A stretch of DNA of 46,111 nt, from positions 1 to 46,111 of the forward strand of contig JAGRDY010000016.1 in assembly GCA_020446815.1 (NCBI GenBank). The letters are read 5' to 3'. The notes beneath the pieces were generated by a model that saw only the letters and a program-made list of their open reading frames with translations, did no database searches and was not told where the DNA came from. The position numbers were made by a program, and so were the translations under genes. Shown piece after piece: positions 10,070-26,737 of this stretch. Numbering within the stretch: the first letter of the stretch is position 1; each line of letters starts with the position of its first letter. The DNA comes from Paracoccaceae bacterium (GTDB taxonomy: Bacteria; Pseudomonadota; Alphaproteobacteria; Rhodobacterales; Rhodobacteraceae).

Positions 10070-10852
10070 TCACCCCGGCGACCCGGCAATGGTGAGGGGG
10101 GCGCCCGATCTTAGCATGGATGCGGTGATCCTTTCTGCCGGTGCGGCATTGCTGATCAGGGTCACGCCTGGCGACCATGGCGCAACCACCTGAAGGGCGC
10201 GCTTGTCGAACTTCGACGCATCCGCCAGGATCAATGTCCGTTCGGAACTGGCGACCATGGCGGTATAGACCTGGGCGGCGGACATCAGGGCCTCGCTGGT
10301 GCCGGCCGCATCGACGCCGGAGGCGCCCAGAACCGCCACCGAGGCGCGATAGCGCATGATCGCGGCGACCGTTTCGGGGCCCTGAACCATCCCTTCCTTA
10401 CCATCGACGATGCCGGGAAGCGCCATCACCTGAACTAGCGGGTTGGCCGACAGTTCGGTCGCGATGCTGAACGAAGGCGTAAGTACCAGCAGGCGGCGCG
10501 CGGCGTTGCGCAGGGCGCGGGCGAAATGCAAGGTGGTCGCGCCGCCGCCGATGAAGATGCTGTCGGCGTCGCCCAGCGCCGCCACCGCGGCGGTGGCGAT
10601 GGCCTGGCGTTCCTTGACGTGCAGCTTGAGTCTTTCTGCCAGCGCCGGTTCGAAAACCTGACTGCGGATCGCACCGCCATAGGTGCGGTTGATGCTGCCG
10701 GCGCGATCGAGCTCTGCGAGGTCGCGCCGGATGGTCTCGGCCGAGACATCCAGCGTTTCCGACAGTTCCACCACCCGCATCGCCGGATTTCCGTCCAGAG
10801 CCGCCAGAATATGCTCGTGCCGCAGGTTTTTCTTGGATTTCGCACGCGCCAT
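10070..10852 (-). CDS. DeoR-family transcriptional regulator
   Basis: A 260-residue regulator. An N-terminal DeoR helix-turn-helix lies at about residues 24-60 (VVELSETLDVSAETIRRDL, then RTYGGA), followed by the DeoR C-terminal sensor domain with IFIGGGATTLHFARAL and ILADASKFDKRALQ. DeoR proteins usually bind phosphorylated metabolites and repress a neighbouring operon. This one is divergent from the aminotransferase/BMC operon and separated by 130 bp, so it probably controls it. A phosphorylated amino alcohol made by the APH kinase would be a reasonable inducer, but that is inference. Confidence 0.92.
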   Translation of the reverse strand: MARAKSKKNLRHEHILAALDGNPAMRVVELSETLDVSAETIRRDLAELDRAGSINRTYGGAIRSQVFEPALAERLKLHVKERQAIATAAVAALGDADSIFIGGGATTLHFARALRNAARRLLVLTPSFSIATELSANPLVQVMALPGIVDGKEGMVQGPETVAAIMRYRASVAVLGASGVDAAGTSEALMSAAQVYTAMVASSERTLILADASKFDKRALQVVAPWSPGVTLISNAAPAERITASMLRSGAPLTIAGSPG

Positions 10853-10873
10853 TCGGTCTCTCCCCGGGCGAGT

Positions 10874-10913
10874 ATATGCCCAAAGTTTGCGATGTCGAGC
10901 GTCAAATATGCCC
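10874..10913. promoter_or_regulatory. candidate operator: ATATGCCC direct repeat
   Basis: ATATGCCC occurs at 10874-10881 and again at 10906-10913, 32 bp apart (about three helical turns), each followed within 5-7 bases by TTGC. Both lie in the 130 bp between the divergent DeoR gene and the aminotransferase gene, where a DeoR operator would be expected. An AT-rich TATATT at 10928-10933 may be part of the plus-strand promoter, but no convincing -35 partner was found. Confidence 0.4.
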
Positions 10914-10982
10914 GACTTGCAACATTTTATATTTCCAAGGCGGAAGCAAAAGCGTATTCTTCACACGTCAGGAGGGAATCAC

Positions 10983-12263
10983 GTGTTCAACTACGGATAT
11001 TTCAGTTTCGACTCGAAAGAGGCGCTTCTCGAAAAGGCCGCCGAGTATTGGAATCCCGGCAAGACCAAGTTCTGGCAGGATGCCGGCACCCCGATGGTGA
11101 TCGATCGCCGCGAAGGCTATCTGCTTTACGATATGTCGGGCAAACGCCTGATCGACCTGCATCTGAACGGCGGCACCTACAATTTCGGCCATCGCCACCC
11201 GGAACTGGTCGAGACCCTGAAATCCGGGCTCGATTATTTCGACATGGGCAATCACTGGTTTCCGTCGGTCGCGCGGGCGGCCTTCGCCGAAAAGCTGGTG
11301 AAGACCGCGCCCCACATGAAATATGCGATCTTCGGATCGGGCGGTGCCGAGGCGGTGGAAATCGCGCTGAAAACCGCCCGCTATGCGACGCAAAGGCGCA
11401 AGATCGTGTCGATCATCAAGGGCTATCACGGTCATTCCGGGCTGTCGGTCGCCACCGGTGACGACCGGTTCAGCAAGATCTTCCTGTCGGACCGGCCCGA
11501 CGAATTCATTCATGTGCCCTTCAACGACGCCGATGCGCTGGAACAGGTGCTGCGCCAGGGCGATATTGCCGCCTTCATCATCGAAACCATTCCCGCGACC
11601 TACGGCTTTCCGATGCCCCATGACGGCTATCTGCAACGGTGTCAGGATTTGTGCCGCAAATACGGGGCCAAGTTCATTTCCGACGAGGTGCAGACCGGGC
11701 TGATGCGCACCGGGGTGATGTGGGGCTGGCAGGGCTATGGGCTCAAGCCCGATATCTTCGTGACCGGCAAGGGGCTGGGCGGCGGCATCTATCCGATCAG
11801 CGCCTGCATGGTGACCGAGGAATGCGGCGGCTGGCTGCATGTGGACGGGGCGGCCCATATCAGCACTTCGGGGGGATCGGAGCTTGGCTGTCTTGTCGGG
11901 CATCACGTTCTGGAAATGCTGGAACGGCCCGAGGTGATTTCCAACACCGCCTTCGTGGCCGAATATTTCGCCCAGTCCATGCGGGAAATGATGGATCGCC
12001 ACAGCGACATCTTTGTCGGCGTGCGTCAGCGCGGCGTGGTGCTGGGGCTGGAATTCGACCACCCCGAAGGGGCTGTCGCCGTGTCGCGGGCGCTATATGA
12101 AAACGGCGTCTGGGCGATTTTCTCGTCGCTGGACAAACGGATCCTGCAATTCAAGCCGGGCGTTCTTCTGGATGTCGATCTGTGTCAGGAAATCATGGAC
12201 AGGTTCGATGCGGCGATGCCACGGGCGCGGCAACTCCTGAAATCGGCAAGGCGGGCGGCATGA
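10983..12263 (+). CDS. class III PLP enzyme (aminotransferase / amino-alcohol phosphate phospho-lyase-like)
   Basis: Fold-type I PLP enzyme of the class III aminotransferase family. The GTG at 10983 is chosen because a strong AGGAGGG (10970-10976) sits 6 bp upstream; the open frame extends further 5' into the DeoR gene. The 426 residues contain GSGGAEAVEIALKTARY near 118-134, the PLP-nitrogen aspartate D234 in ISDEVQTG, and the Schiff-base lysine K263 in TGKGLGGG. In RMM-type BMC loci a class III homologue is thought to act as a phospho-lyase. It would convert phosphorylated 1-amino-2-propanol to propionaldehyde, phosphate and ammonia. The APH kinase in this locus supports that role; ordinary transamination remains possible. 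It overlaps the aldehyde dehydrogenase gene by ATGA. Confidence 0.88.
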   Translation: MFNYGYFSFDSKEALLEKAAEYWNPGKTKFWQDAGTPMVIDRREGYLLYDMSGKRLIDLHLNGGTYNFGHRHPELVETLKSGLDYFDMGNHWFPSVARAAFAEKLVKTAPHMKYAIFGSGGAEAVEIALKTARYATQRRKIVSIIKGYHGHSGLSVATGDDRFSKIFLSDRPDEFIHVPFNDADALEQVLRQGDIAAFIIETIPATYGFPMPHDGYLQRCQDLCRKYGAKFISDEVQTGLMRTGVMWGWQGYGLKPDIFVTGKGLGGGIYPISACMVTEECGGWLHVDGAAHISTSGGSELGCLVGHHVLEMLERPEVISNTAFVAEYFAQSMREMMDRHSDIFVGVRQRGVVLGLEFDHPEGAVAVSRALYENGVWAIFSSLDKRILQFKPGVLLDVDLCQEIMDRFDAAMPRARQLLKSARRAA

Positions 12264-13801
12264 CGCTTCAATCCCCTCCCAATCCATCGCTTCTGCATGT
12301 ACCGGACCGCAATCTGTCGTCGGCCAACATGAAGGTCGGGCGCGCCGGTTGGGCGGTTCGCTATTACAGCACCTTTACCCGCGATGCGGTCCTCGGTATC
12401 GCCGAGGCGGTGGCGCGCGCCGGCCATGAAAAGGCGGGGTTCTATGCCGATTGGGCGGTGCGTGAAACCGGCTTTGGCGTGGCCGAGCACAAGAAGCTCA
12501 AGAACGAGCTGAGCGCGCTGCCGCTGCTCGATTATTACCGCGACCTTGACCTGGTCACGCCGCGCATCGACGCCGGGCGCAAGATCGTCGATCTGCCCAA
12601 GCCTGCCGGGGTGATTTTCGCGCTGACACCGGCCACCAACCCGATCGCCACGCTTTACTACAAGACGATGCTGGCGATCCTGAGCCGCAACGCGATGGTG
12701 ATCAGCCCGCATCCGGCGGCACGCGAATGCAGTCTGGATGCCGCCCGGCACCTGGCGGCGGCGGCCGAAAAGGCCGGGGCGCCCGCCGGGCTGATCCAGT
12801 GCATCGAGGAACCATCGGTGCCATTGGTGCAGGAACTGATGCGTTCGGACAAGATTGCCGTGATCATGGCCACCGGCGGCACGCCGATGGTGCGCGCCGC
12901 CTATTCGTCGTCGAACCCGGCGATCGGGGTGGGGCCGGGCAATGCGGTGGCCTATGTCGACCCCAGCGCCAATGTCGACCGGGCGGCGCGGCGGATCGTC
13001 GAATCCAAGAGCTTTGACAACTCGGTCCTGTGCACCAATGAAAGCATCGTCCTGACGCTGGATTGCAGTCACGGAAACCTGGAGCGGGCGCTGCGCACCG
13101 CGGGGGGGCATATCTGCAACGAGGCCGATACCGGGCGGCTGCGCGACTATCTGTTCCCCGCGTCGGGGTTCAATGTGGCGGCCATCGGCAAGAGCGCCTG
13201 CTGGATCGCCGAAAAGGCGGGGCTGCGCGTCAGCCCCGGCACCAAGGTGCTGGTTCCGGTCATTCGCGCGCCCGGACAGGATGACGTGCTGTTTCGCGAA
13301 AAGCTTTGCCCGGTGCTGCCGCTGACTTCGGCGGTGGATTTCGAACAGGCCCTGACATTCGCCAAACAGACGATGAGGCGCGGCGCGGGCCATTCGGCGG
13401 CGTTCCATGGCGAGGACAGCGCGCGCATCCTGCGCTTTTCGCAGGAACTGCCGGTATACCGCGTGGTGGTGAATGCCCCTTGTTCGCAGGGTGCCGCGGG
13501 TTTTGCCACGCATCTGCCACCCTCGTTCATGATCGGCACGGGGTTCAAGGGGCGGTCGTCGATCGGCGAGAATGTCGGGCCGCAGCATCTGGTCCACTGG
13601 ACCTCGATCGCGTATAACAGCGACGCATCGGTGCCCTTCGGAAGCTTCGACCTTTCGTCCGTCACGACGCCTGCGAAACGCCCCGCGCGCCAGGCCGGCG
13701 CCCTCCCGGAACCGCAAGCCGCTGCGGCCGAGATTGACCGCGACATGCTGCGCCAGCTGATCCTGGAAGAATTGCGCGGGCTGAACGGGGGCAGGTCATG
13801 A
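12260..13801 (+). CDS. CoA-acylating aldehyde dehydrogenase of a microcompartment (PduP/EutE-like)
   Basis: A 513-residue member of the acylating aldehyde dehydrogenase family (aldehyde + CoA + NAD+ to acyl-CoA). The ATG at 12260 overlaps the upstream stop. Visible motifs are TPATNPIATLYYK near 123-135, NAD-site ATGGTPMVRAAYSSSNP, GVGPGNAV, and the catalytic cysteine C258 in SFDNSVLCTNES. After residue ~470 a Pro/Ala-rich linker leads to an amphipathic helix (DRDMLRQLILEELRGL, about 494-509), which looks like an encapsulation peptide. It is therefore the likely lumen enzyme. The gene overlaps the following shell gene by ATGA. Confidence 0.93.
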   Translation: MTLQSPPNPSLLHVPDRNLSSANMKVGRAGWAVRYYSTFTRDAVLGIAEAVARAGHEKAGFYADWAVRETGFGVAEHKKLKNELSALPLLDYYRDLDLVTPRIDAGRKIVDLPKPAGVIFALTPATNPIATLYYKTMLAILSRNAMVISPHPAARECSLDAARHLAAAAEKAGAPAGLIQCIEEPSVPLVQELMRSDKIAVIMATGGTPMVRAAYSSSNPAIGVGPGNAVAYVDPSANVDRAARRIVESKSFDNSVLCTNESIVLTLDCSHGNLERALRTAGGHICNEADTGRLRDYLFPASGFNVAAIGKSACWIAEKAGLRVSPGTKVLVPVIRAPGQDDVLFREKLCPVLPLTSAVDFEQALTFAKQTMRRGAGHSAAFHGEDSARILRFSQELPVYRVVVNAPCSQGAAGFATHLPPSFMIGTGFKGRSSIGENVGPQHLVHWTSIAYNSDASVPFGSFDLSSVTTPAKRPARQAGALPEPQAAAAEIDRDMLRQLILEELRGLNGGRS

Positions 13802-14409
13802 CCGATCTTCGCGCGTCGATCTTCATCGACCAGTTGCAGCCGCAGACATTGGCCTATGTGTCCACCTGGATGCGCGGGTCGCTGCCGCGCGCGCGCATGG
13901 CCGCGCAGATCATCGAAATCGCGCCGGGGCTGGATATCGAGGCGCTGACCGATGTGGTGCTGAAAAGCGCCGATGTGCGGGCGGGCCTTCTGGTCGTCGA
14001 AAGGCAATTCGGGACATTGCAGTTTCATGCCCATTCCACGGCCGAGGTTCATGCCGGTGCCGCAGCGGTTCTGCGATCGCTTGGCAAGACCATGAATGAC
14101 ATCGAAAAACCCCGGATTCTTGCGTCGAAACTGGTGACGCGGGTCGAGGATCAGCACGCCTTTCTGATGAACCGCAACAAGCTGGGGTCGATGGTCCTGG
14201 GCGGCGAAAGCGTCTACCTGCTGGAATGCCAGTCGGCGGCCTATGCCATTCTGGCCTGCAACGAGGCGGAAAAGGAGGCGGATATCAAGCTGATCGACAT
14301 GCGCATGATCGGCGCCAACGGGCGGCTGTATCTGGCCGGGACCGAGGCCGACGTGCGCAATGCCCGCGGCGCCGCGGAAGCCGCCCTGCGTCTGGCGGGG
14401 GCCGGTTGA
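13798..14409 (+). CDS. tandem-domain BMC shell protein (BMC-T), copy 1
   Basis: A 203-residue protein with two BMC-like halves, as in trimeric shell tiles that form pseudohexamers. The halves show related patterns: EALTDVVLKSADVRAGLLVVERQFG in the first, and AYAILACNEAEKEADIKLID followed by GRLYLAGTEADV in the second. The order of elements resembles the circularly permuted (EutL/PduB-like) arrangement rather than plain tandem BMC-H. It is a paralogue of the protein at 15412-16065 (shared start MT-LR and IxxLQPQ). It is translationally coupled at both ends (ATGA overlaps). Confidence 0.85.
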   Translation: MTDLRASIFIDQLQPQTLAYVSTWMRGSLPRARMAAQIIEIAPGLDIEALTDVVLKSADVRAGLLVVERQFGTLQFHAHSTAEVHAGAAAVLRSLGKTMNDIEKPRILASKLVTRVEDQHAFLMNRNKLGSMVLGGESVYLLECQSAAYAILACNEAEKEADIKLIDMRMIGANGRLYLAGTEADVRNARGAAEAALRLAGAG

Positions 14410-14834
14410 TGTCGGCGATACGCGATGAGATACGCGCGATCCTGCGTGAGGAGATCGCCACGCTGCGGTCCGCGCCATCGGGGCCGGTGACGGAAACCGT
14501 GCAGATAATCACGGGCGCCGATCTGACCCGCTTTGCCTGCGAAATCGTCGCGCGCGCAAAGGATCCCGCCTTTGCCGCCGATGTGGCCAATGGAAGGGTC
14601 AGGTTCGATATCGCGCCACCGGACGGAGGCGGCCCGCGCGGCACGGCGATCGTGACCAGCCCGGCAAGGCCGCAAGGCCCGGAACTGGACAAGGCGCTGA
14701 TCACCGAAAGGGATATCGCCGAACTGGCCGCCGACCGGCGCATCCTGCGGATCGGCAAGGCGAGCCGCCTGACGCCTCTGGCACAGGACGAGGCCCGCCG
14801 CAGAGGCATCAGAATCGAAAGGTCTGCATCATGA
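14409..14834 (+). CDS. unrecognised BMC-associated protein with encapsulation-like N-terminal helix
   Basis: A 141-residue protein of no family I can name. Residues 1-21 (MSAIRDEIRAILREEIATLR) form an amphipathic helix with I/L spacing like known BMC encapsulation peptides. A short linker is followed by a compact middle part (ITGADLTRFACEIVARAKD). The C-terminal segment ITERDIAELAADRRIL / ASRLTPLAQDEARRRGI resembles a recurrent module found in several BMC-associated proteins, of the general pattern vTerdv...TPlArdeAr..gI. It is locked between BMC-T and BMC-P genes by one-base and four-base overlaps. A cargo adaptor or small lumen protein is possible; no catalytic motif is visible. Confidence 0.8.
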   Translation: MSAIRDEIRAILREEIATLRSAPSGPVTETVQIITGADLTRFACEIVARAKDPAFAADVANGRVRFDIAPPDGGGPRGTAIVTSPARPQGPELDKALITERDIAELAADRRILRIGKASRLTPLAQDEARRRGIRIERSAS

Positions 14835-15085
14835 TCAAGGGACGCGTTTCGGGAAAGGTCTGGTCGTCGCGCCGTATCGGCAGTGTTCCCTCCGGGCCCC
14901 TGCTCGAGGTAAGGACCGAAAAGGGCGATACCCTGATCGCCTATGACCCTCTTGGCTGTGCCCCCGGCGAACAGGTGCTGATCACCCAGGGATCGGTGGC
15001 CGCAGGGTATTTCACCGACCGTCCGGCGCCCGTTGACGCACTGATCATCGGTTCTATCGACGAAGACACCATCCAGAAATCCTGA
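14831..15085 (+). CDS. BMC vertex protein (EutN/CcmL family, BMC-P)
   Basis: An 84-residue pentameric shell-vertex protein. The EutN/CcmL pattern is clear: [20 protein letters not shown] at the start, a conserved [20 protein letters not shown], and the end [12 protein letters not shown]. Pentamers cap the icosahedral vertices of the microcompartment. The ATG overlaps the stop of the upstream gene (ATGA), so shell stoichiometry is set partly by coupling. A stronger free ribosome-binding site follows for BMC-H. Confidence 0.95.
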
Positions 15086-15096
15086 AGGAGAAAAAC

Positions 15097-15381: not shown

Positions 15382-15411
15382 TCCTGAACGGACCCCACCG
15401 GGAGCAAGAGC

Positions 15412-16065
15412 ATGACTGAACTTCGCGTCTATCTGCCGATCGAAGACCTGCAACCGCAATTCGCGGCCTACCTGTCTTCGCCGACGCGGGCGCGCGGTTA
15501 TCCGCCCTTCAAGGGGCAGAATTCGCTGATCATCGAGGTTTCCCCGGCGCTGAGCATTCACCGGATCACCGATCTTGCCCTGAAGGCGGCGCCCGAGATG
15601 GAGCCGGGCATCCTGTTTACCGAACGGCAATTCGGATTGCTGGAGCTTCACGCCGACAGCATGACGGATCTCGAGGCGGCGGGGCGCGCCATTCTGAGGG
15701 GCATCAAGGCGCGGCCCGAGGATCAGCTTGCGCCCGAGATCCTCTATCACGACATCATCGAGAACCTGTCCGATCAGCACGCCATCATCCTCAACCGGTC
15801 GCGGGACGGCTCCATTCTCGTGCCGGGGGTGGCGCTCCTGATCTATGAGATGGCCCCGGCGCTGTTTGCCTGCGTTGCCGCCAACGAGGCGGAAAAGGCG
15901 GCCCCGAAGGCCATCGTCAATGACGTTCAGATGATGGGGGCGACGGGGCGCATCTTCATGTCCGGCACGGTCGCGGAAATGAAGGTCGCGCGCGACACGA
16001 TCACCCGAAAACTGGAAAGCATTGAGGGGCGCAAGGCCCGTCAAGGGGGTTCGGGAAAACCCTGA
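15412..16065 (+). CDS. tandem-domain BMC shell protein (BMC-T), copy 2
   Basis: A 217-residue paralogue of the BMC-T at 13798-14409. Shared features include MTELR at the start, IEDLQPQFAAYLS, a first half with RITDLALKAAPEMEPGILF and ERQFGLLELHADS, and a second half with DQHAIILNRSRDGSI, CVAANEAEKAAPKAIVND and GRIFMSGTVAEMKV. The C-terminus has an extra basic tail (about 15 residues). Two different BMC-T proteins suggest separate tiles or a stacked trimer with distinct pores. It is the last gene of the plus operon and converges on the minus operon 73 bp away. Confidence 0.85.
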   Translation: MTELRVYLPIEDLQPQFAAYLSSPTRARGYPPFKGQNSLIIEVSPALSIHRITDLALKAAPEMEPGILFTERQFGLLELHADSMTDLEAAGRAILRGIKARPEDQLAPEILYHDIIENLSDQHAIILNRSRDGSILVPGVALLIYEMAPALFACVAANEAEKAAPKAIVNDVQMMGATGRIFMSGTVAEMKVARDTITRKLESIEGRKARQGGSGKP

Positions 16066-16100
16066 TCCGTCACGCATCGTCACAGGCCCGAAGGCGCCGG

Positions 16101-16130: not shown

Positions 16131-16138
16131 TTGCCGAT

Positions 16139-16864
16139 TCAGGGGCCTGGCGAGACGCCATCGACCGAAAGCTTCAGGCCCATGATCCGCGCCAGATCCG
16201 TGCTTGTCATGACGTGGCAATAGATCATGTTGATGATCTCCAGTTCCTTGCGGTGCAGATCGTCCGACCCGGCCGCACAGCAATCTTCCAGCACGATCAC
16301 CCCAAAGCTTTCATCCGCAAGGCTGCGCACGGTCGAGGACACGCATTGATCGGTGAAAATGCCGGTGCAGATGACGTTCCTGATGCCAAGATTGTGCAGG
16401 ATCAGCCGCAGATTGGTGCCGGTCAGGGCGGAATCGGTGGTCTTGGTGATCTCGATCTCATCGCCGACCGGGCTCAGTTCGGGCACCAGTTGCGATGGTT
16501 TGCCATGCTTGGGCAGCAACAGATTGTTCCATCCCGGCAGCTTTTGCGACAGCGACCGGTCGCGCCCGTCGTCGGTGTGGCAGGCGATCCGTGCGAAAAG
16601 GCATTCGATCCCCGCCGCCCGCGCCGCGGACAGAAGTGCTGCGGTGCGCGGGATCACCTGATGGTTCATCCGGTCATGGAACGGGGTCCAGGCATCATAT
16701 GCGGCCCGTTCGGCGGGGTCGAGGCGGGCGCGGTCGGGGCGTTCCAGATAGGTGTTCTGGATGTCGATGACCAAAAGCGCCGTATCCGCGGGCGACAGGC
16801 GCGGGTCATCCGGCTCCGGGGCGCCCGCATAATAGATCGAGCGAAAATCGGTTTTCCAGTTCAT
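16139..16864 (-). CDS. isochorismatase-like cysteine hydrolase
   Basis: A 241-residue member of the isochorismatase-like hydrolase superfamily (amidases, ureido-group hydrolases, isochorismatases). The cysteine-hydrolase triad can be read: D34 in LLVIDIQNTY, K141 in ITKTTDSALTGTN and C174 in IFTDQCVSSTVR. Its GTNLRLILHNLGIRNVICTG is also typical. The substrate cannot be told from sequence. Its ATG overlaps the stop of the diol dehydratase small-subunit gene by four bases, so it is the last gene of the minus BMC operon. It may remove a carbamoyl or amide group from a pathway substrate; that is only a guess. Confidence 0.88.
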   Translation of the reverse strand: MNWKTDFRSIYYAGAPEPDDPRLSPADTALLVIDIQNTYLERPDRARLDPAERAAYDAWTPFHDRMNHQVIPRTAALLSAARAAGIECLFARIACHTDDGRDRSLSQKLPGWNNLLLPKHGKPSQLVPELSPVGDEIEITKTTDSALTGTNLRLILHNLGIRNVICTGIFTDQCVSSTVRSLADESFGVIVLEDCCAAGSDDLHRKELEIINMIYCHVMTSTDLARIMGLKLSVDGVSPGP

Positions 16865-19621: not shown

Positions 19622-20626
19622 CTATCGCATGCGGGCAAGGTAATCGCTGGCCAGATCTGCGGTGACACGGGCAAAATGCGGGGCCATTGCCTGCGGTTCG
19701 GGCGCGTCGATATGGCTGCCGATCCAGGCCAGAAGCGCCATGCGGCGCAGCATGACGAAAGTGTCGATTTCACGCACGTCCTCGTCCGGCAGGTCGCGCA
19801 CGCGGCGATAGCCGTCGACCCAGGATTCCTTCAGCGCACCGACCTGCGGGTGATCTTCCATGAAGCTGATGCCGGTGGCGAAGTCATAAAGGAACCAGCC
19901 GAATCCGCAGTCGTCGAAGTCGATCAGGCGGGTCGTGGCGCCGTCAATCAACAGATTGGCCAGCCGCATGTCGGCGTGGATCAGCCCGTAACGGTCGGCC
20001 CCCTTGCCGAAATCCACCAGACGCTCGACGATACGGGCCTCGCACTGTTCGAGAACATCGCGGATCGGTGCCGTCATGTTCGGGGCGTCGCGCCAGTTTC
20101 CCCAGGTGGCGTCCGGCCCGAACACCGTATCCAGATCCCAGGTCAGCCGTTCGAAACCGGGCGGGCGCTGCCAGCCCAACGAATGGATATGGGTGCGCGC
20201 GGCAATGCCGCCAAGTTCGCGAAACGGTTCGACCAGATCATGGTCCGGGTCGGGCTGGTGGCCTTCGACAAAGTGAAACAGCACCATGAAGCGAGGCGCG
20301 GCCAGTGCCGCGATGCGCCCGGTCTGGATCGCGTCGCCGTTCTTGCCCGGATAGACGCCGGGCGTCACCACGCCGCCCCTGTCTTTCATGTCGCGCGCCC
20401 ACATCAGTTCGCATTCGATGGCGCGGTGGCTGTGATAGTTTTCCCGGTGGATGCGCAGCACGGCGCGAAAGCCATTCGGCGCCTCGACCAGATAGGTGGC
20501 ATTTTCCGATACATTGATCAGCCGCGCCCTGGCCCCTTCCGGCAAATCCCAAAGGTGCAGGGATTGGTTGGCCAGCACTTCCAGGTGGCCCAGAAGCTCG
20601 TCGAGCGGCATGTCGGTTGCGGTCAT
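19622..20626 (-). CDS. APH-family kinase (putative amino-alcohol kinase)
   Basis: A 334-residue member of the aminoglycoside phosphotransferase/choline-kinase-like fold. The catalytic loop is LIHADMRLANLLIDG with H217, D219 and N224, and the metal-binding DFDD starts at D236. An N-terminal lobe with SENATYLVEAPNGFRAVLRIHR matches the nucleotide-binding sheet. In RMM-type microcompartment loci an APH homologue is assigned as 1-amino-2-propanol kinase, and the SDR and class III PLP enzyme here support that reading. It lies 18 bp downstream of the SDR gene and 38 bp before the dehydratase fusion. Confidence 0.88.
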   Translation of the reverse strand: MTATDMPLDELLGHLEVLANQSLHLWDLPEGARARLINVSENATYLVEAPNGFRAVLRIHRENYHSHRAIECELMWARDMKDRGGVVTPGVYPGKNGDAIQTGRIAALAAPRFMVLFHFVEGHQPDPDHDLVEPFRELGGIAARTHIHSLGWQRPPGFERLTWDLDTVFGPDATWGNWRDAPNMTAPIRDVLEQCEARIVERLVDFGKGADRYGLIHADMRLANLLIDGATTRLIDFDDCGFGWFLYDFATGISFMEDHPQVGALKESWVDGYRRVRDLPDEDVREIDTFVMLRRMALLAWIGSHIDAPEPQAMAPHFARVTADLASDYLARMR

Positions 20627-20644: not shown

Positions 20645-21424
20645 TCAGATTTCACCCAGCGAATCGAGCGATTCAGGGATGATCTGGCCGCCGTCCACGA
20701 CAACCTGCTGGCCGGTGATGTAACCGGCCTCGTCGGACGCGAAGAACAACGCCGCATTGCCGATGTCTTCGACCGCGCCCAGCCGTTTCAGCGGGATCGA
20801 GGCAGCCATCGTGTCGAGATATTCCTGCCCCAGATCCTGAAGACCTTCGGTATAGATGTTGCCGGGCATCACGGCGTTGATCGTGGTGTTGTAGCGCGAC
20901 AGTTCCATCGCGGCGGTCTTGAGAAAGCCAAGCTGCCCGGCCTTGGATGCGCCATAATGCGACCAGCCCGGAAAGCCGGTGATCGGGCCGGTGATGGAGG
21001 AGGTCAGCACGACACGCCCCTTGCCGGCCCTGTCGAAATGGGGGATCGCGGCCTTCACGCACAAAAAGGCCGAGCGCAGGTTGGTGGCCAGCACCTGATC
21101 CCATTCGGCGACATCCATGTCGACGATCTTGGTTTGGGGAAATGCCCCGGCATTGGCGCACATCACATCAAGCCCGCCCTGCGCCTTGGCGGTGCTGTCG
21201 ACCATGGCGCGCACACTGTCCCAGTCGGAGACATCGCAGATTTCATAGCGGACAGTGCCGCCGGCCCTGTTCAGTTCGTCGCAGGTCTTTTTCAGGCTCT
21301 CCTCGCCACGCGCCGTGATCGTGACCCTGGCGCCCGTGGCGGCGAACACCTTGGCGATGCCCCGGCCAATGCCCTTCGATCCGCCGGTGACGATTACGCT
21401 GCGTCCCTTGAGTGATGTCAGCAT
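20645..21424 (-). CDS. short-chain dehydrogenase, 1-amino-2-propanol dehydrogenase-like
   Basis: A 259-residue classical SDR. The cofactor motif TGGSKGIGRG lies at 13-22, CANAGAF near 89-95, and the catalytic S143, Y157 and K161 in TSSITGPITG and SHYGASKAGQLGF. The stretch around SSITGPITGFPGWSHYGASK and the C-terminal VVDGGQIIPES closely match, from memory, the RMM-locus SDR of Mycobacterium smegmatis. That enzyme oxidises S-(+)-1-amino-2-propanol to aminoacetone. The substrate assignment is by similarity only. Confidence 0.9.
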   Translation of the reverse strand: MLTSLKGRSVIVTGGSKGIGRGIAKVFAATGARVTITARGEESLKKTCDELNRAGGTVRYEICDVSDWDSVRAMVDSTAKAQGGLDVMCANAGAFPQTKIVDMDVAEWDQVLATNLRSAFLCVKAAIPHFDRAGKGRVVLTSSITGPITGFPGWSHYGASKAGQLGFLKTAAMELSRYNTTINAVMPGNIYTEGLQDLGQEYLDTMAASIPLKRLGAVEDIGNAALFFASDEAGYITGQQVVVDGGQIIPESLDSLGEI

Positions 21425-21470
21425 CTTATGCTCCTGTCCTTGATCAAAACTTCTGGTCGGGTGAAATGCC

Positions 21471-22268
21471 TCATTCGGCCTGCCTGCCTTTTACCATCCA
21501 GCGCAGGGTGAAGGCCACGGCGATGATCACGAACGATCCCAGCACCGACAGGATGCCCAGGGTCGGCACAAGCGGCGAATAGCCGGAAACCATCTTGGCA
21601 TAAAGCCATTCGGGAAGGGTCGAATCCGCCCCGGTGGTAAAGAGCGAAAGCGGAAAGTTGCCCCAGCTCAGCAGGAAGGCGAACAGGCCCGCCGAAATGA
21701 TGCCGGGCATCAGCAACGGCAAGGTCACTTCGCGCAGGATGGCGAAGGTGGAGGCCCCCAGATCGCGCGCCGCCTCTTCCAGTGCAGGGTCGAAACCGTA
21801 GGCCCGGATGGCGATCACAAGCGTGGCGATCGGGGCGATCCACACCAGGTGGGCGACAACGGCCGTTTTCCAGGTCGGCACGATGCCGATGGTGTTGAAC
21901 CAGATCAGCAGCGCCAGCCCGAGAACGGTCTGGGGAAAGAAGATCGGCAGCAGGATGAGCTTTTGAAACAGCGGCCGGTACCGCCACTGATAGCGGGCAA
22001 AGGCCAGCGCGCCGAAAAACCCGACGATCATCGAGACGGCGGTGACGATAACGGCGATTTTCAGCGAGGTGTTGAACAATTCGATGACGGTGCTGCTGGC
22101 CAGCGCCTCGCCATACCATTTCGTTGCATAGGTCCTGATCGGAAAGCTCAGGTAGCGGGCCTTCGAGATCGAGGCGAAGCCGACCGAGATCAGTGGCAGA
22201 TAAAGCAGAAAGATCACCACGATCCCATAGACCAGAAGGGCCACGCGGGTTGAACGGCTGGCCCGCAT
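21471..22268 (-). CDS. ABC transporter permease (PotC/spermidine-putrescine type)
   Basis: A 265-residue inner-membrane permease with about six hydrophobic helices and the cytoplasmic EAA loop EEAARDLGAS...TLPLLMPGI near residues 162-190. It pairs with the permease directly upstream (one-base overlap at 22268), the usual PotB/PotC heterodimer. It lies 46 bp before the SDR gene in the same operon, which suggests that it imports the substrate of the microcompartment pathway. Confidence 0.92.
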   Translation of the reverse strand: MRASRSTRVALLVYGIVVIFLLYLPLISVGFASISKARYLSFPIRTYATKWYGEALASSTVIELFNTSLKIAVIVTAVSMIVGFFGALAFARYQWRYRPLFQKLILLPIFFPQTVLGLALLIWFNTIGIVPTWKTAVVAHLVWIAPIATLVIAIRAYGFDPALEEAARDLGASTFAILREVTLPLLMPGIISAGLFAFLLSWGNFPLSLFTTGADSTLPEWLYAKMVSGYSPLVPTLGILSVLGSFVIIAVAFTLRWMVKGRQAE

Positions 22269-23125
22269 CAGCGCTTCCTTCCCATGATCGTATCGAGATC
22301 GACGCGTGACAGTCCGACGACCGCCACGGTGCCGACAAGGATGATCAGCACCATCGCCAGCGCCGAGCCGAGCGGCCAGTTCTGCCCGAAGGTAAAGGCG
22401 GTTTCGACATCATCGGCCAGAACGATCACCACCTGCCCGCCCAGCAGCTTGGATTCCGCCATCGCCCCGGCGGCCAGGACGAAAGACAGAAGCGACCCGA
22501 CAAGGATGCCGGGGGCCGCCAGCGGCAGATCGATTTCACGAAACACCTGCCAGCGCGTTGCCCCCAGATCGGTGGCCGCCTGGCGGGCATCGTCGGGAAC
22601 CATGGATATGCCCTGGGCCAGCGGGAAAAGCATGAAGGGAAAATAGACGTAAACCAGCCCGAAGACGATGATCGGCACATTGTAAAGCATGCCGTCGGGA
22701 CCGGCCCCCAGATAGCTGCGCATGTATCCCTCGATCAGCCCGCCCTTCATCAGTGTCAGAACCCAGCCGAAAAGCCGGATGTTTTCCGACACGAAAAGCG
22801 TCATCACGACGGCGATCGTCAAGACCAGCGAAAACCGGCCAAACACCTTGGCCATCCCGTAGGCCAGCGGCCAACAGACCACGAGCAGGATCACCGTCGC
22901 GGCGAACGCCATGCTCAGCGACCAGAAAAGCGACCGGTAATAGCCCTGGCTGACAATGACCCCGAACGACGAGAAATCGGGCATGTTCAGAACGCTGAAC
23001 ACTTTTTGCGGCATGATGGAGAACAACGCCACCAGCAATAGCGGCGCCAGAAAGCTGACCGCCAGCAACGCCGTTATCGGCAGTGCGGCCAGCAGACCCT
23101 GACGGCGGTCGAGACGCTCCATCAT
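22268..23125 (-). CDS. ABC transporter permease (PotB/spermidine-putrescine type)
   Basis: A 285-residue permease with an N-terminal hydrophobic helix (LPITALLAVSFLAPLLLVAL), a larger first periplasmic loop as in PotB, and the EAA loop RQAATDLGATRWQVFREI followed by DLPLAAPGI. The ATG at 23125 overlaps the ATPase gene stop by four bases. It forms the membrane channel with the PotC-like partner. Confidence 0.92.
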   Translation of the reverse strand: MMERLDRRQGLLAALPITALLAVSFLAPLLLVALFSIMPQKVFSVLNMPDFSSFGVIVSQGYYRSLFWSLSMAFAATVILLVVCWPLAYGMAKVFGRFSLVLTIAVVMTLFVSENIRLFGWVLTLMKGGLIEGYMRSYLGAGPDGMLYNVPIIVFGLVYVYFPFMLFPLAQGISMVPDDARQAATDLGATRWQVFREIDLPLAAPGILVGSLLSFVLAAGAMAESKLLGGQVVIVLADDVETAFTFGQNWPLGSALAMVLIILVGTVAVVGLSRVDLDTIMGRKR

Positions 23126-24207
23126 TCGCCCCCGATCAGATGCGTGCTGTCGATATCGAAACCGAGAACGACCGCGTCGCCGATACCGCCGCCAAAGGCA
23201 TCCTCGCGCAGCTTCTCGACGGTGATCTGCACGCCGGAAGCGGTTTCGACATTATACTGGATACGCGACCCGAGCGCATATTGCGCCGTCAGAACGCCCT
23301 GCAGGATGATATCCGCCGTTTCGCCCGCGGGCAAAAAGCGCAAGGATTCCGGGCGCACCATCATCGTGAACCGCGCCTCTGGGCCAAGATCGAGACCATA
23401 ATCCCGGGCGACGCCATTCACATGGAGTTCGATTCCCTTGCCGACCAGGCCACCGTTGGGCGTGCCGTGCACATCGAACAGGTTCACCTCGCCCATGAAT
23501 TCCGCGACGAACCGGCTGACGGGGCGGGCATAAATCTCGTCCGCCGTGGCGATCTGTTCGAACCGGCCCGCCCGCATGATGGCGATGCGGTCGGACATCA
23601 CCATGGCCTCTTCCAGCGAATGGGTGATGTAGACGAAGGTTTTTCCGGTGCGCTCGTGAAGATCCTTCAGTTCCTTTTCAAGCGTCTTTCGCAGCCGGTA
23701 ATCCAGCGCCGAAAGCGGTTCGTCGAAAAACAGGATCTCCGGGTCGAAAGCCAGGGCACGCGCCAGGGCCACGCGCTGCTTTTCGCCGCCGGAACATTGT
23801 TGGATGCGTTTGCCATAAAACTCGCGCGGCAGGCGCAGAAGATCGAGCAGCTCGATCGCGCGTTCCTTGCGCTGTGCCGGTGCCACGCCGCGAATCTTCA
23901 GCGGAAATTCGATATTCTCGCCGACCGAACGGTGCGGAAAGAGGGCCAGCGACTGAAACACCATGCAGGTCGGGCGCAGATTGGCCGGCACCTGATCAAT
24001 GCGGTTGCCGCGCAGCGATATTTCACCTTCCGTCAGATCATCCATTCCGACCAGCAGACGGATGATTGTCGATTTGCCGCTGCCGGACGGGCCGACGATG
24101 GTAAAGAATTCACCTTCCTCGATTTCGAGGTCGATCCCGTGCAGAGCCGTGAAGTCGCCGAATTTCTTCTTGACGCCCTTGAGGCGGAGGATGATCGGTG
24201 CGGCCAT
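23122..24207 (-). CDS. ABC transporter ATP-binding protein (PotA type)
   Basis: A 361-residue ATPase. Walker A is GPSGSGKST at 39-47, the signature is CSGGEKQRVALARAL, Walker B is EILFFDEPLSALD, and the switch histidine is in YITHSLEEAM. The C-terminal ~120 residues form a TOBE-type regulatory domain, as in PotA/MalK subunits. It is separated from the binding-protein gene by 93 bp carrying a small hairpin, and overlaps the PotB-like gene by four bases. Confidence 0.94.
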   Translation of the reverse strand: MAAPIILRLKGVKKKFGDFTALHGIDLEIEEGEFFTIVGPSGSGKSTIIRLLVGMDDLTEGEISLRGNRIDQVPANLRPTCMVFQSLALFPHRSVGENIEFPLKIRGVAPAQRKERAIELLDLLRLPREFYGKRIQQCSGGEKQRVALARALAFDPEILFFDEPLSALDYRLRKTLEKELKDLHERTGKTFVYITHSLEEAMVMSDRIAIMRAGRFEQIATADEIYARPVSRFVAEFMGEVNLFDVHGTPNGGLVGKGIELHVNGVARDYGLDLGPEARFTMMVRPESLRFLPAGETADIILQGVLTAQYALGSRIQYNVETASGVQITVEKLREDAFGGGIGDAVVLGFDIDSTHLIGGE

Positions 24208-24242
24208 GGTTGTTCCGTGCAGTGACAGGGGCGACTCACCCC

Positions 24243-24257
24243 CGCGGCAAAGCCGCG
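24243..24257 (-). other. intercistronic hairpin between binding-protein and ATPase genes
   Basis: CGCGGC (24243-24248), AAA loop, GCCGCG (24252-24257). There is no T-run. Hairpins in this position often stabilise or partly terminate the transcript so that the periplasmic binding protein is made in excess. That role is inferred from position. Confidence 0.4.
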
Positions 24258-24300
24258 AAGGTGAGATAGTGGTGATCTTGATAGGGCAGGCTGTGTCCGG

Positions 24301-25431
24301 TCAACCGCGCCTTGCGGCCGTATAGATGTCGATCAGCGCGTCATAGTCGGGAATCACCTGATAATCGAGCGCGCGGGACAGTTCTTCTTCAAGGCTGTCC
24401 CACTGGATCGCGTCCAGTTCATCGGCATCAAAGAGCGCCAGGGTTTCGGGATTGCCCATTTGCGCCACCGGATTGTAGGTGCCTTCGGCAAAGCTGACGG
24501 CCTTGCAGATTTCCGGCTGCTGTACATATTCCAGGAACTGCGGCGCCAGGTTCGAGGGATCCGGGTTGTTGACCAGCGAGGTCAATTCGATCCAGACAAC
24601 CCCGCCCTTGCCGTCAACCGGCCCGGACTTGGGCGTGATGGCGCGCACATTTGTTGCACCATCATATCTCGCGGGCGATGCGGTATAGGTGCCGCCGGTG
24701 AAATAGGCGTCGATCTCGCCGTTGATCAGCGCGGTGTTCAGCGCCACGAGATCGTCCGACAGCAGCTTAGCGCCGCCGAATATCTGCGCGGCGGTTTCCT
24801 TGAACTTGGCCATCCCGGCCTCGTCCAGCGGCTTGAACGGGTCAAGACCGGCCGTCAGACACATATGCATGACGTTCCAGTTGTCATAGGTCAGGACAGC
24901 ATAACGCCCCGCCATGGCCGGATCGAGAAACAGATTCCAGCCCTGATCTTCGGCCGTTTCACGCGAAACCTTGTCGGTATTGACCACGAAGCTGAACGGG
25001 CCATAGCGCTGCGGCATCCCCAAAAGCGCGCCATCGTCGGCAAAGGCCAGCGGATAGGGTTTGGCGAATTCGGGCGACATCTTCTCGAAGAAAGGCATGA
25101 ACCTTTCCTTGTCGAGCGGCTTGATCAGGTTTTCAGGGTAAAGTTGATCGCGCGCCCAGGGCTGGTTGAGATTGATCAGATCCCAGACGTTGATCTCGCC
25201 GGCGCGGATCTTGTTGATCATGTCGGGGTCGGACGTGCCGCTTTCGGCCCTTACCGTTGCGCCGGGGTGCAGGTCACGAAACGGCCCGAGCACCTGATCG
25301 GTGTTATAGCCCTCCCAGCACAGGATGTTGAGCTGATCGTCGCGGGCCGCCATTGCACGCCGCGGCGCGAGGGTCGCCGCGCCCAATGCGCCAGCCATTC
25401 CCATCGAAAAGTCTCTGCGATTGATTTGCAT
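24301..25431 (-). CDS. periplasmic substrate-binding protein (PotD/spermidine-putrescine type)
   Basis: A 376-residue extracytoplasmic solute-binding protein. The start at 25431 gives MQINRRDFSMGMAGALGAAT, a Tat-like signal with twin arginines (NRRDFS) and an Ala-rich h-region ending near RRAMAA. The mature part has the PotD-like ILCWEGYNTDQVLGPF, and SGTSDPDMINKI, NLNQPWARDQLYPENLIKPL and PQRYGPFSFVVNTDKV. It is the first gene of the nine-gene minus BMC operon. By family it binds small cations or amino compounds. An amino alcohol would fit the neighbouring kinase and SDR. Confidence 0.93.
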   Translation of the reverse strand: MQINRRDFSMGMAGALGAATLAPRRAMAARDDQLNILCWEGYNTDQVLGPFRDLHPGATVRAESGTSDPDMINKIRAGEINVWDLINLNQPWARDQLYPENLIKPLDKERFMPFFEKMSPEFAKPYPLAFADDGALLGMPQRYGPFSFVVNTDKVSRETAEDQGWNLFLDPAMAGRYAVLTYDNWNVMHMCLTAGLDPFKPLDEAGMAKFKETAAQIFGGAKLLSDDLVALNTALINGEIDAYFTGGTYTASPARYDGATNVRAITPKSGPVDGKGGVVWIELTSLVNNPDPSNLAPQFLEYVQQPEICKAVSFAEGTYNPVAQMGNPETLALFDADELDAIQWDSLEEELSRALDYQVIPDYDALIDIYTAARRG

Positions 25432-25505
25432 GATATTCACTCCCCTGTTCTTGTTTTCCTGTTCTTGCTTTCCGTTAAAGCTTACGCCTGATTCGGATTT
25501 ACTGT

Positions 25506-25548
25506 CTTGACAGCGGGCGGGCAAAACTTGACATCAACCTGCGTCAAG
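25506..25548. promoter_or_regulatory. candidate AraC-type operator: CTTGAC repeats
   Basis: CTTGAC occurs at 25506-25511 and 25527-25532, exactly 21 bp apart, and its complement GTCAAG at 25543-25548, making an inverted pair with the second copy. Direct half-sites 21 bp apart (two helical turns) are typical for AraC-family dimers. The block lies between the divergent binding-protein and AraC genes. Some of these TTGAC elements could instead be -35 boxes, but no matching -10 at 16-18 bp was found. Confidence 0.4.
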
Positions 25549-25590
25549 CCGCCGTTTTCCGTCGAAAAGATACCATATCTTACACGAAGT

Positions 25591-25607
25591 GGGCAATTTT
25601 CTTGCCC
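25591..25607. repeat. GGGCAA/TTGCCC inverted repeat before the AraC gene
   Basis: GGGCAA (25591-25596), five-base TTTTC spacer, TTGCCC (25602-25607). It is a short hairpin or operator-like palindrome about 85 bp upstream of the AraC start. Function unknown. Confidence 0.35.
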
Positions 25608-25690
25608 GACCTCCAACTTTCTGACATTTTGGTCGAACCGCAGTCGCACCTTTGGGCCCTCTGAGCAGCAAGCCGGAAGTCACAAATCTG

Positions 25691-26737
25691 ATGTATCACG
25701 CGCCAACCAGGCCCGGCTATCGCAGCCCGACGAAGGTACTTTCGGCAGCGGCGACCGGCGCGGCCTCCCTGTTCCAAGAATATCATGGCGATGTCGATTC
25801 GATATTCGGGGTTGCGGGGATCGACCCCTGCGAAGTCGACGATCCGGTGAACGAACTGAATCTCGGGCAGTTCTGCAAGCTTTTCGAGGTCGCCGCGCGC
25901 AGAACCGGCAATGACAATATCGGTCTGGAATTCGGCCATGGCTTTCAGCCGCGCCATCTTGGCGCTCTGGGATTTGCGGCGATAAGTTCGCCGACGCTGG
26001 CATCGGCATTGCGAAATCTTGAGATGTTCTTTCCGGCCCACCAGGGAAAGACACAGTTTTCGCTGAGCCAGGACAGCGAAGTTCTTTGGCTGCGGTATCG
26101 TATCTATGATGAACGTATCGAGCAGCGCCGCCAGGACGCCGAGCTTTCTCTCGGCATGTTCTGCAACATTTTCCGCGAGGCGCTCGGCCCGCAATGGGCG
26201 CCGCTTGAAGTGCGCTTCGAACATGCCCGCCCGGACGGGCACAAGGACCACGAAAAGTGCTTTGGTGCACCGGTGAAGTTCGGCCGCCAGACCAATGCCC
26301 TGGCCTTCTTGCGGCGCGATCTGGACGCAAGAATGCCAAACCCGGATCCCTATCTTTTTTCCATGGTCCGGTCGTTTCTGGAATCCCGCCAGCCCGCCAA
26401 ACACGACGCCGAGGCATTTGCCGCGTGGATCCGCACCGAGATCTGCAGCCGGCTTGGCCGTGGCCTGCCGACATTTCACGATGTGGCCGAATATCTGGGC
26501 CTGCCCGAATCTGTCTTTCAGCAACAACTCAAACTCAACAACGTCGCCTTCAGCGATATCCAGCGTGCCGCACGCCAGGAGCTCGCGATGCACTATCTCG
26601 GCAACCCCGACATGACGCTTTCTGAAATAGCCTATGCACTTGGCTATTCCGAACTGTCGGCGTTTTCCAGGGCGTTCCGAAGCTGGACCGGCACGAGCCC
26701 ACAGCGCTACCGGCGGGGCAATGACTTGCGCGCATGA
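25691..26737 (+). CDS. AraC-family transcriptional regulator (OruR-like N-terminal domain)
   Basis: A 348-residue regulator from the ATG at 25691; an in-frame TTG at 25652 would add 13 residues but has no better ribosome-binding site. The first ~200 residues match the AraC ligand-binding domain found in OruR-like regulators (FCKLFEVAARRTGNDNIGLEFG, HLGALGFAAISSPTL). The C-terminal ~100 residues carry two helix-turn-helices ending in MTLSEIAYALGYSELSAFSRAF and TGTSPQRYR. It is divergent from the importer operon across 259 bp and most likely activates it. Confidence 0.92.
   Translation: MYHAPTRPGYRSPTKVLSAAATGAASLFQEYHGDVDSIFGVAGIDPCEVDDPVNELNLGQFCKLFEVAARRTGNDNIGLEFGHGFQPRHLGALGFAAISSPTLASALRNLEMFFPAHQGKTQFSLSQDSEVLWLRYRIYDERIEQRRQDAELSLGMFCNIFREALGPQWAPLEVRFEHARPDGHKDHEKCFGAPVKFGRQTNALAFLRRDLDARMPNPDPYLFSMVRSFLESRQPAKHDAEAFAAWIRTEICSRLGRGLPTFHDVAEYLGLPESVFQQQLKLNNVAFSDIQRAARQELAMHYLGNPDMTLSEIAYALGYSELSAFSRAFRSWTGTSPQRYRRGNDLRA

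What the first reader, a model, noticed from the sequence alone, without database searches (positions are those of the whole stretch)
10070..26737. Hybrid microcompartment locus joining an amino-alcohol (RMM-type) pathway to a B12 diol dehydratase
Seen: shell genes (two BMC-T, one BMC-P, one BMC-H), acylating aldehyde dehydrogenase, class III PLP enzyme, APH kinase, aminopropanol-dehydrogenase-like SDR, fused diol dehydratase plus small subunit, isochorismatase-like hydrolase and a PotABCD-type importer, all in two convergent operons. Known: RMM loci use kinase, phospho-lyase, SDR and aldehyde dehydrogenase for 1-amino-2-propanol, while Pdu loci use diol dehydratase for 1,2-propanediol. Both signature routes in one locus would converge on the same aldehyde inside one shell. 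Alternatively the dehydratase may act on an unusual substrate. I know of no described alphaproteobacterial BMC of this composition.
Basis: partly seen in the sequence, partly recalled or inferred. Interest (0 to 1): 0.85.

Follow-up and report, generated by a model that had tools for sequence, protein, structure and literature searches.

The report
Amino-alcohol microcompartment with B12 dehydratase
A bacterial protein-shelled organelle for breaking down small amino alcohols carries, in the same gene cluster, an unusual vitamin-B12 diol dehydratase that has an altered substrate pocket and no recognisable repair protein, so what that dehydratase does becomes a directly testable question.

Summary
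Window 10070-26737 holds an RMM-type (Rhodococcus/Mycobacterium; aminoacetone/1-amino-2-propanol) microcompartment: its two BMC-T proteins match M. smegmatis MSM0275 and MSM0271 one-to-one. A fused diol dehydratase, its small subunit and an isochorismatase-like hydrolase share an operon with importer, SDR and kinase. The combination is not new: Axen 2014 defined RMM2 by an added diol dehydratase and suggested bifunctionality, and RMM2 is catalogued in the alphaproteobacterium Paracoccus yeei. Not found in print by my searches: (i) this dehydratase lies beside kinase or PLP genes without a shell in 25 of 45 full-flank loci (14 have shells); (ii) dehydratases of two lineages sit beside one shell type; (iii) catalytic residues are kept, but both residues around substrate C3 are changed (Ser301 to Asp in 80 of 80 loci, Gln336 to Ala/Thr/Cys); (iv) no reactivase passes the cut-off in 44 genome entries with fused enzyme (about 40 distinct), against 4 of 4 records with ordinary enzyme. 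I read it as a reactivase-free feeder enzyme for a polar, perhaps amino, 1,2-diol; 1,2-propanediol remains the main rival. New variant of a known kind.

The parts
10070..10852 (-). DeoR-family regulator, divergent from the shell operon
   Evidence: Pfam HTH_DeoR + DeoRC
10908..12263 (+). class III PLP enzyme (predicted amino-alcohol phosphate phospho-lyase)
   Evidence: PF00202 238 bits; start chosen by eye; best solved relatives are transaminases, an ethanolamine-phosphate phospho-lyase (6tor) is lower in the list; activity inferred
12260..13801 (+). acylating aldehyde dehydrogenase with C-terminal encapsulation-peptide-like helix
   Evidence: EutE/AdhE-type NCBIfam matches; tail DMLRQLILEELRGL, with a comparable tail in 17 of 18 relatives printed plus R. 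jostii; the 18th, L070, runs off its locus end (judged by eye)
13798..14409 (+). BMC-Tdp shell protein 1 (MSM0275-like)
   Evidence: top PDB match 5l39, 'RMM microcompartment shell protein MSM0275', 255 bits, next 153
14409..14834 (+). conserved 141-aa protein of unknown function with EP-like N-terminal helix
   Evidence: relatives in L029, L051, L062, L063, L067, L069 and, more diverged, L011, L014, L032 and in R. jostii; no family hit in the longer frame that contains it
14831..15085 (+). BMC-P vertex protein
   Evidence: PF03319 66.5 bits
15097..15381 (+). BMC-H shell protein
   Evidence: PF00936 92.8 bits; PRPH motif present
15412..16065 (+). BMC-Tdp shell protein 2 (MSM0271-like)
   Evidence: top PDB match 5suh, 'MSM0271 protein', 273 bits, next 148
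16139..16864 (-). isochorismatase-fold cysteine amidohydrolase
   Evidence: PF00857 112 bits
16861..17298 (-). diol dehydratase small subunit, without N-terminal targeting extension
   Evidence: PF02287 142 bits; N-terminus compared by eye with homologs (readable in 16 of 20 rows)
17295..19583 (-). fused large+medium subunit of B12 diol dehydratase; D308 and A343 in place of Ser301/Gln336
   Evidence: PF02286 + PF02288; alignments
19622..20626 (-). APH-fold kinase (predicted amino-alcohol kinase)
   Evidence: top PDB match 6ef6, 275 bits, next 50
20645..21424 (-). SDR dehydrogenase (predicted aminopropanol dehydrogenase)
   Evidence: top PDB matches 6ci8/6ci9, 309 and 308 bits, next 273
21471..25524 (-). 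PotCBAD-type ABC importer
   Evidence: NCBIfam/Pfam; the binding protein is only a weak SBP_bac_6 match
25652..26737 (+). AraC-type regulator, QhpR family
   Evidence: NF049968 288 bits, cut-off 250

Best explanation
The locus is an RMM-type (also called Aaum or Aut) metabolosome of a Rhodobacteraceae bacterium. Proposed route: a Pot-type importer brings in an amine; the SDR interconverts aminoketone and amino alcohol; the APH kinase phosphorylates the alcohol; the class III PLP enzyme eliminates phosphate and ammonia to give an aldehyde; the EP-tagged acylating dehydrogenase turns it into acyl-CoA inside the shell. The added module, a fused and apparently reactivase-free B12 dehydratase, belongs with the SDR/kinase/PLP enzymes rather than with the shell, and dehydratases of two lineages sit beside this same shell type. 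It most likely feeds the pathway by dehydrating a 1,2-diol whose C3 carries a polar or cationic group (best guess an aminodiol such as 3-amino-1,2-propanediol), which the Asp at position 301 would bind. It probably works outside the shell or at its surface. Shown here: gene content, RMM shell identity, co-occurrence, changed pocket residues, no reactivase detected. Inferred: every reaction, the substrate, the location and the order of acquisition.
For: RMM shell and enzymes. Same-strand operon with SDR and APH in the window. All-in-one co-directional clusters (importer, SDR, APH, PLP, ALDH, shell, hydrolase, dehydratase): L029, L069, L071. Shell-less partnership: of 45 full-flank loci, SDR+APH in 33, APH or PLP without shell in 25; also Shinella and Agrobacterium plasmids. 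Shell state needs 8 changes on the dehydratase tree, 7 forced by starred branches (quick tree). Shell proteins of the window, six relatives and G287 form one 100/100 clade, yet the dehydratases of the window and those six are rejected as one clade (p-AU 2.8e-5). Pocket: Asp at 301 in 80 of 80 loci plus the window; 336 is Ala 71, Thr 7, Cys 2; Ser/Gln in Ilyobacter, Halomarina, Kosakonia and G770/L134. Ser301 and Gln336 lie at substrate C3, and the double Ala mutant has a 40-fold higher Km for 1,2-propanediol (0.06 to 2.4 mM; review PMC7674605, passages and Table 1). Reactivase PF08841: own genome 0 of 1, 0 of 39 over the cut-off, 0 of 4, 0 of 2 plasmids, against 4 of 4 records with unfused Ser/Gln enzymes.
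Against: No activity or substrate was tested. The changed Asp may pair with the neighbouring residue 337 (Arg in 79 of 80 loci) rather than bind a cation. Importers vary: sugar-type in Shinella and Agrobacterium, branched-chain type in L013, so an amine substrate is not implied by them all. Partners are partly distant: 29 of the 33 APH and 21 of the 32 PLP genes are close to the window's by tblastn; the rest belong to the same families only, were themselves used to build the profiles, and in Shinella/Agrobacterium SDR and PLP are 28-29% identical and APH gave no BLAST match. 6 of 45 full-flank loci have neither APH, PLP enzyme nor shell; in Ancylobacter L072 the dehydratase lies beside glycerol kinase, which hints at glycerol. 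The RMM2 strain P. yeei TT13 grows on propylene glycol (PMC5773746, whole text). A closely related shell operon (G287) stands without dehydratase. One of the 39 genomes (G423) had a sub-cutoff DDR match (20.8 bits, cut-off 24.6). 44 genome entries are about 40 distinct genomes, because four pairs share a contig length. G087, fused but with Ser301, also lacks reactivase, so absence goes with fusion at least as well as with Asp301. The tree group was chosen after seeing the quick tree.
Confidence: 0.5

Rival explanations
1. One reading: the dehydratase makes propanal from 1,2-propanediol (or 3-hydroxypropanal from glycerol) and the amino-alcohol branch makes the same aldehyde, both finished by one ALDH in one shell.
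For: Catalytic residues intact; Axen 2014 offered a bifunctional RMM2; RMM2-bearing P. yeei TT13 grows on propylene glycol; dehydratase adjacent to shell genes in 5 of the 6 same-order genomes that have a dehydratase; glycerol kinase beside the dehydratase in L072.
Against: Both C3-side residues changed, which as Ala mutations in the K. oxytoca enzyme weaken 1,2-propanediol binding (Asp was not among the mutants listed); present without shell in many loci; no targeting extension on the small subunit; Lim 2018 infers a lactate route for P. yeei.
Confidence: 0.3
2. The dehydratase acts on the amino alcohol itself or on an N-substituted ethanolamine/propanolamine (a lyase-like use of the diol dehydratase fold).
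For: Frequent company of amino-alcohol-type genes and, in many loci, Pot- or APC-type importers.
Against: The seven residues compared, which bind the metal and the two hydroxyls or take part in catalysis, are kept (roles), as in diol enzymes; the kinase/PLP route should already handle amino alcohols.
Confidence: 0.1
3. Dehydratase genes are passengers without a functional link to the shell pathway.
For: G287 and G139 have related shells without dehydratase.
Against: Embedded in one operon with SDR and APH; association in several gene orders and two dehydratase lineages with one shell type.
Confidence: 0.07

Closest known systems
RMM2 microcompartment (Axen et al. 2014; Sutter et al. 2021; P. 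yeei TT13 in PMC8156839)
   Same: RMM shell, SDR, APH-type phosphotransferase, class III PLP enzyme, ALDH, plus diol dehydratase.
   Different: In Axen's RMM2 the dehydratase is on the strand opposite to the ancillary genes and the hydrolases of RMM1 are absent; here it is co-directional with SDR/APH and a hydrolase is present. Pot importer and DeoR/AraC regulators instead of amino acid permease and GntR. The residues of Axen's RMM2 dehydratases could not be compared.
RMM1 / Aaum / Aut microcompartment of M. smegmatis and Rhodococcus
   Same: Both BMC-Tdp proteins match one-to-one (5l39, 5suh); SDR and kinase have their best solved relatives in 6ci8 and 6ef6 (that these two are the M. smegmatis RMM enzymes is recalled).
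   Different: No dehydratase annotated in the 32.6 kb read around the R. jostii pRHL2 locus.
PDU microcompartment and its diol dehydratase PduCDE
   Same: Homologous dehydratase with the same catalytic residues.
   Different: Fused subunits, Asp301/Ala336, no reactivase found, no targeting extension on the small subunit, none of the other Pdu enzymes in the locus.
Soluble glycerol dehydratase DhaBCE (dha regulon)
   Same: Enzyme family.
   Different: Separate subunits with Ser/Gln and reactivase (Kosakonia).

Membership tests
RMM (RMM1/RMM2) microcompartment | RMM-clade BMC-Tdp shell proteins | tested here: met
   255 bits to MSM0275 and 273 bits to MSM0271, next best 153 and 148
RMM (RMM1/RMM2) microcompartment | aminopropanol-dehydrogenase-type SDR and APH kinase | tested here: met
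   best PDB matches 6ci8/6ci9 and 6ef6; identity of these entries with the M. smegmatis RMM enzymes is recalled, the PDB names shown are generic
RMM (RMM1/RMM2) microcompartment | class III PLP enzyme and EP-bearing acylating ALDH | tested here: met
   (EP judged by eye)
RMM (RMM1/RMM2) microcompartment | GntR regulator and amino acid permease (ancillary in RMM1) | tested here: not met
   DeoR, AraC and Pot ABC importer instead; an AA-permease gene is found in 19 related dehydratase loci (cluster 11; family checked on one member)
RMM2 subtype | diol dehydratase genes in the locus | tested here: met
RMM2 subtype | dehydratase on the strand opposite to the ancillary genes; hydrolases absent | tested here: not met
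   same strand as SDR and APH, isochorismatase-like hydrolase present; definition from PMC4207490
PDU microcompartment | separate PduC, PduD, PduE with reactivase PduGH | tested here: not met
   fusion; no PF08841 in the genome
PDU microcompartment | encapsulation peptide on dehydratase subunits | tested here: not met
   small subunit starts at about the same point as in shell-less homologs (by eye, 16 of 20 rows readable); the linker of the fused subunit was not analysed
any microcompartment | assembled shell with enzymes inside | not testable with these tools
   needs microscopy and purification

The most novel reading that the evidence does not exclude
An alphaproteobacterial subfamily of B12 diol dehydratases is an aminodiol dehydratase that has done away with its reactivase. 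Subunit fusion (which should block the beta-subunit swap) and replacement of both inactivation hot-spot residues (Ser301, Gln336) would give a suicide-resistant enzyme that works alongside amino-alcohol kinase/phospho-lyase pathways and has been taken up more than once by RMM organelles.
Probability: 0.3. Interest if true: 0.75.

Novelty: new variant of a known kind. Interest (0 to 1): 0.5.

Why it matters
Since 2014 it has been open whether the diol dehydratase of RMM2 loci belongs to the organelle's pathway. The co-operonic position, the shell-less partnership with kinase/PLP genes and the two dehydratase lineages beside one shell type say that it belongs to the amino-alcohol pathway, and point to a substrate class to test. 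Separately, diol dehydratases are limited in biotechnology by suicide inactivation. A natural family with fused subunits, substitutions at exactly the two residues that were engineered against inactivation, and no reactivase detected would be a useful starting point.

Tried and rejected
Canonical PDU operon: rejected (fusion, no reactivase, no other Pdu enzymes among the locus genes). Pure neighbourhood accident: unlikely. Hydrolase as a strict partner of the dehydratase: G287 lacks both (dehydratase in the genome; hydrolase in the 15 kb read), but Agrobacterium fabrum pAt has an isochorismatase-family gene beside its kinase/PLP/SDR/Pot genes and R. jostii has one about 13 kb from its kinase, both without dehydratase in the stretch read, so the link is loose. 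Substrate from the binding protein: no solved relative at E 0.001. Actinobacterial RMM2 dehydratases could not be reached: genome contigs allowed one scan, R. jostii shows none in the stretch read, and paper supplements were closed. Viral contigs gave one relative (L118), not analysed. My first reading, that L072-L081 lack the kinase, was wrong for four of them: profiles found APH and PLP in L074, L076, L078, L079. Literature (search listings): searches showed no description of the reactivase-free, Asp301 or shell-less family; one search matched 235 papers, of which 20 were listed. The library holds open-licence papers only. Of the Mallette and Kimber papers on the RMM enzymes, the kinase paper is not held and the others were not looked up.
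Full report
1. The observation. The plus-strand operon is class III PLP enzyme, acylating ALDH, BMC-T1, a 141-aa unknown, BMC-P, BMC-H, BMC-T2. The minus-strand operon is importer (PotD, A, B, C), SDR, APH kinase, fused PduC-PduD, small subunit, isochorismatase-fold hydrolase. Gaps on the minus strand are short (46, 18 and 38 bp between PotC, SDR, APH and PduCD; 4-bp overlaps after that; coordinates), so the dehydratase is most simply read as co-transcribed with the amino-alcohol genes. The genome is a 3.47-Mb draft with a single Dehydratase_LU gene.

2. What kind of shell. BMC-T1 matches M. smegmatis 'RMM microcompartment shell protein MSM0275' (5l39) at 255 bits, next best 153; BMC-T2 matches MSM0271 (5suh) at 273 bits, next best 148. 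SDR and kinase have their best solved relatives in 6ci8/6ci9 (309 and 308 bits, next 273) and 6ef6 (275 bits, next 50). That these are the RMM aminopropanol dehydrogenase and kinase of Mallette and Kimber is recalled; the PDB names shown are generic, and those papers were not read. The ALDH has a C-terminal LRxLILEEL-type tail; of 18 relatives printed, 17 show a comparable tail, as does R. jostii, and L070 runs off its locus end (by eye). Membership in RMM is therefore well supported.

3. What was already known. Axen 2014 (PMC4207490, passages) separates RMM1 from RMM2 by the diol dehydratase, notes that it lies on the opposite strand, prefers the view that it is not used, and offers bifunctionality as the alternative. 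Sutter 2021 (PMC8217296, two parts of seven read plus passages) keeps RMM2 and puts the RMM BMC-Tdp in clades of their own. PMC8156839 (passages) reports RMM2 in Paracoccus yeei TT13, and PMC5773746 (whole text) says that this strain grows on propylene glycol, finds no pdu operon and infers a lactate route. PMC6620236 (passages) proposes an Aut pathway and finds it in Actinobacteria, Firmicutes and Proteobacteria. So the hybrid composition is not new, and neither is RMM2 in Alphaproteobacteria.

4. The dehydratase and its company. A scan of genome contigs (84,980 species genomes) gave 145 relatives, of which the best 80 were kept (the search patterns do not include positions 301 or 336). With profiles for each partner, the 45 loci with full 10-kb flanks show: small subunit 45, SDR 39, APH 33, PLP enzyme 32, hydrolase 28, shell 14; SDR and APH 33; APH or PLP without shell 25; none of APH, PLP, shell 6 (L013, L038, L072, L073, L075, L081). 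29 of the 33 APH and 21 of the 32 PLP genes are close relatives of the window's; the rest are of the same families but distant, and some were used to build the profiles. Shinella and Agrobacterium plasmids carry dehydratase, small subunit, sugar-type ABC importer, SDR, phosphotransferase and class III PLP enzyme in one shell-less run; their SDR and PLP are 28-29% identical to the window's and their kinase gave no BLAST match. On the dehydratase tree shell presence needs 8 changes, 7 forced by starred branches, and the early-branching clade has none (quick method, shells sought only within about 10 kb, two short shell-bearing loci kept on purpose).

5. Two dehydratase lineages beside one shell type. 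In G099, G074, G130 and G228 the order is DeoR, then PLP-ALDH-shell-Pot-SDR-APH-hydrolase in one strand, with dehydratase and small subunit beside DeoR. In L029, L069 and L071 everything including the dehydratase is co-directional. The window has a third order. The four shell proteins of the window, L051, L060, L062, L063, L096, L097 and G287 form a 100/100 clade (the window with the six but without G287 has only 74/59). The dehydratases of the window and those six are rejected as one clade (log-likelihood 103.5 lower, p-AU 2.8e-5; group chosen after seeing the quick tree). Two acquisitions or one replacement would both give this. G287 has this shell operon with SDR and kinase, without dehydratase and, in the 15 kb read, without the hydrolase. 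Among 390 genomes of the order, 11 have a BMC-T match, 7 of them with two copies; 5 of these 7 have the dehydratase. One further genome (G087) has a distant fused dehydratase without this shell.

6. The active site. By alignment to the glycerol dehydratase, window residues Q148, H150, E177, E228, Q303, D342 and S369 correspond to Gln141, His143, Glu170, Glu221, Gln296, Asp335 and Ser362 of the K. oxytoca enzyme (the review lists the metal ligands with glycerol-dehydratase numbers, one higher). All are kept. Ser301 is Asp (window D308) in 80 of 80 loci and the window; Gln336 is Ala in 71, Thr in 7, Cys in 2. Ilyobacter, Halomarina, Kosakonia and G770 have Ser and Gln. The review PMC7674605 (passages) says that the C3-OH of glycerol points to Ser301 in the inactivating conformation, and its Table 1 gives a Km for 1,2-propanediol of 0.06 mM in wild type and 2.4 mM in S301A/Q336A. 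The Ala mutants inactivate more slowly with glycerol, but kcat/kinact of the double mutant is not better (0.006 against 0.009 for wild type, in units of 10^4). Asp at 301 was not among the mutants listed. Position 337 is Arg in 79 of 80 loci (Ala in L019; Lys on the two plasmids), so a salt bridge with Asp301 is possible.

7. No reactivase found. The reactivase family PF08841 is absent from the window's genome (99.98% complete), over the cut-off in 0 of 39 further genomes (one sub-cutoff match; a fortieth handle, L023, was not held), 0 of 4 from the phylum sample and 0 of 2 plasmids with the fused enzyme (plasmids only, not their chromosomes). It is present in 4 of 4 records with an unfused enzyme. 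For most of the 39 no completeness is told. G087, a distant fused enzyme with Ser301 and Ala336, also lacks it, so absence goes with fusion at least as well as with Asp301. The proposed reactivation works by swapping the medium subunit (PMC7674605), which a fusion should block; that is my inference. A corrinoid adenosyltransferase is present in the genome.

8. Reading. The amino-alcohol route plus shell is the published RMM model carried over by homology. The dehydratase belongs with the SDR/kinase/PLP set rather than with the shell. Given the changed C3 pocket, Pot- or APC-type importers in many loci and amine-linked neighbours (a diverged glutamine-synthetase-like ligase in L013; a glutamine-amidotransferase-like hydrolase in Dongia L030; a QhpR-type regulator in the window), I think a polar or amino 1,2-diol is the likeliest substrate. 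I cannot exclude 1,2-propanediol or glycerol: importers are sugar-type in Shinella and Agrobacterium, Ancylobacter L072 sits beside glycerol kinase, and P. yeei grows on propylene glycol. How the product aldehyde joins the kinase/phospho-lyase route is not settled.

Noticed in passing
window 2686-9880 and 26788-26864: The locus lies between ribosomal protein genes (S17- and L29-like frames read by eye, L14, L5, L15) with SecY on the left and a tRNA-Arg on the right. The L16 gene is on another contig (C6), so the usual ribosomal operon may be split here; an island at a tRNA is possible.
   Followed up: partly
window 42090-43727 (Rfam hit 43212-43314): MttB-family methyltransferase homolog with an Rfam PYLIS_3 match but an open frame without an internal stop, as expected of a non-pyrrolysine homolog.
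   Followed up: no
window 14409-14834: Conserved 141-aa RMM-locus protein without family hit; EP-like N-terminus and a C-terminal RLTPLA-type motif that I recall from EutT-like proteins.
   Followed up: partly
L013 and L038 (Roseovarius): Dehydratase pair in a run with branched-chain-type ABC importer, glutamine-synthetase-like ligase and Fe-ADH (and an SDR in L013), without kinase or PLP enzyme (families checked on L013 only).
   Followed up: partly
L093 (G087): Distant fused dehydratase (45% identity) with Ser301 but Ala336, also without reactivase in the genome.
   Followed up: no
L119 (R. jostii RHA1 pRHL2): RMM locus with a duplicated run of BMC-T, unknown, BMC-P, BMC-H genes with identical protein accessions.
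   Followed up: no
L121 (Agrobacterium tumefaciens plasmid): Kinase/PLP/SDR/Pot set without annotated shell or dehydratase next to urea carboxylase and allophanate hydrolase.
   Followed up: no
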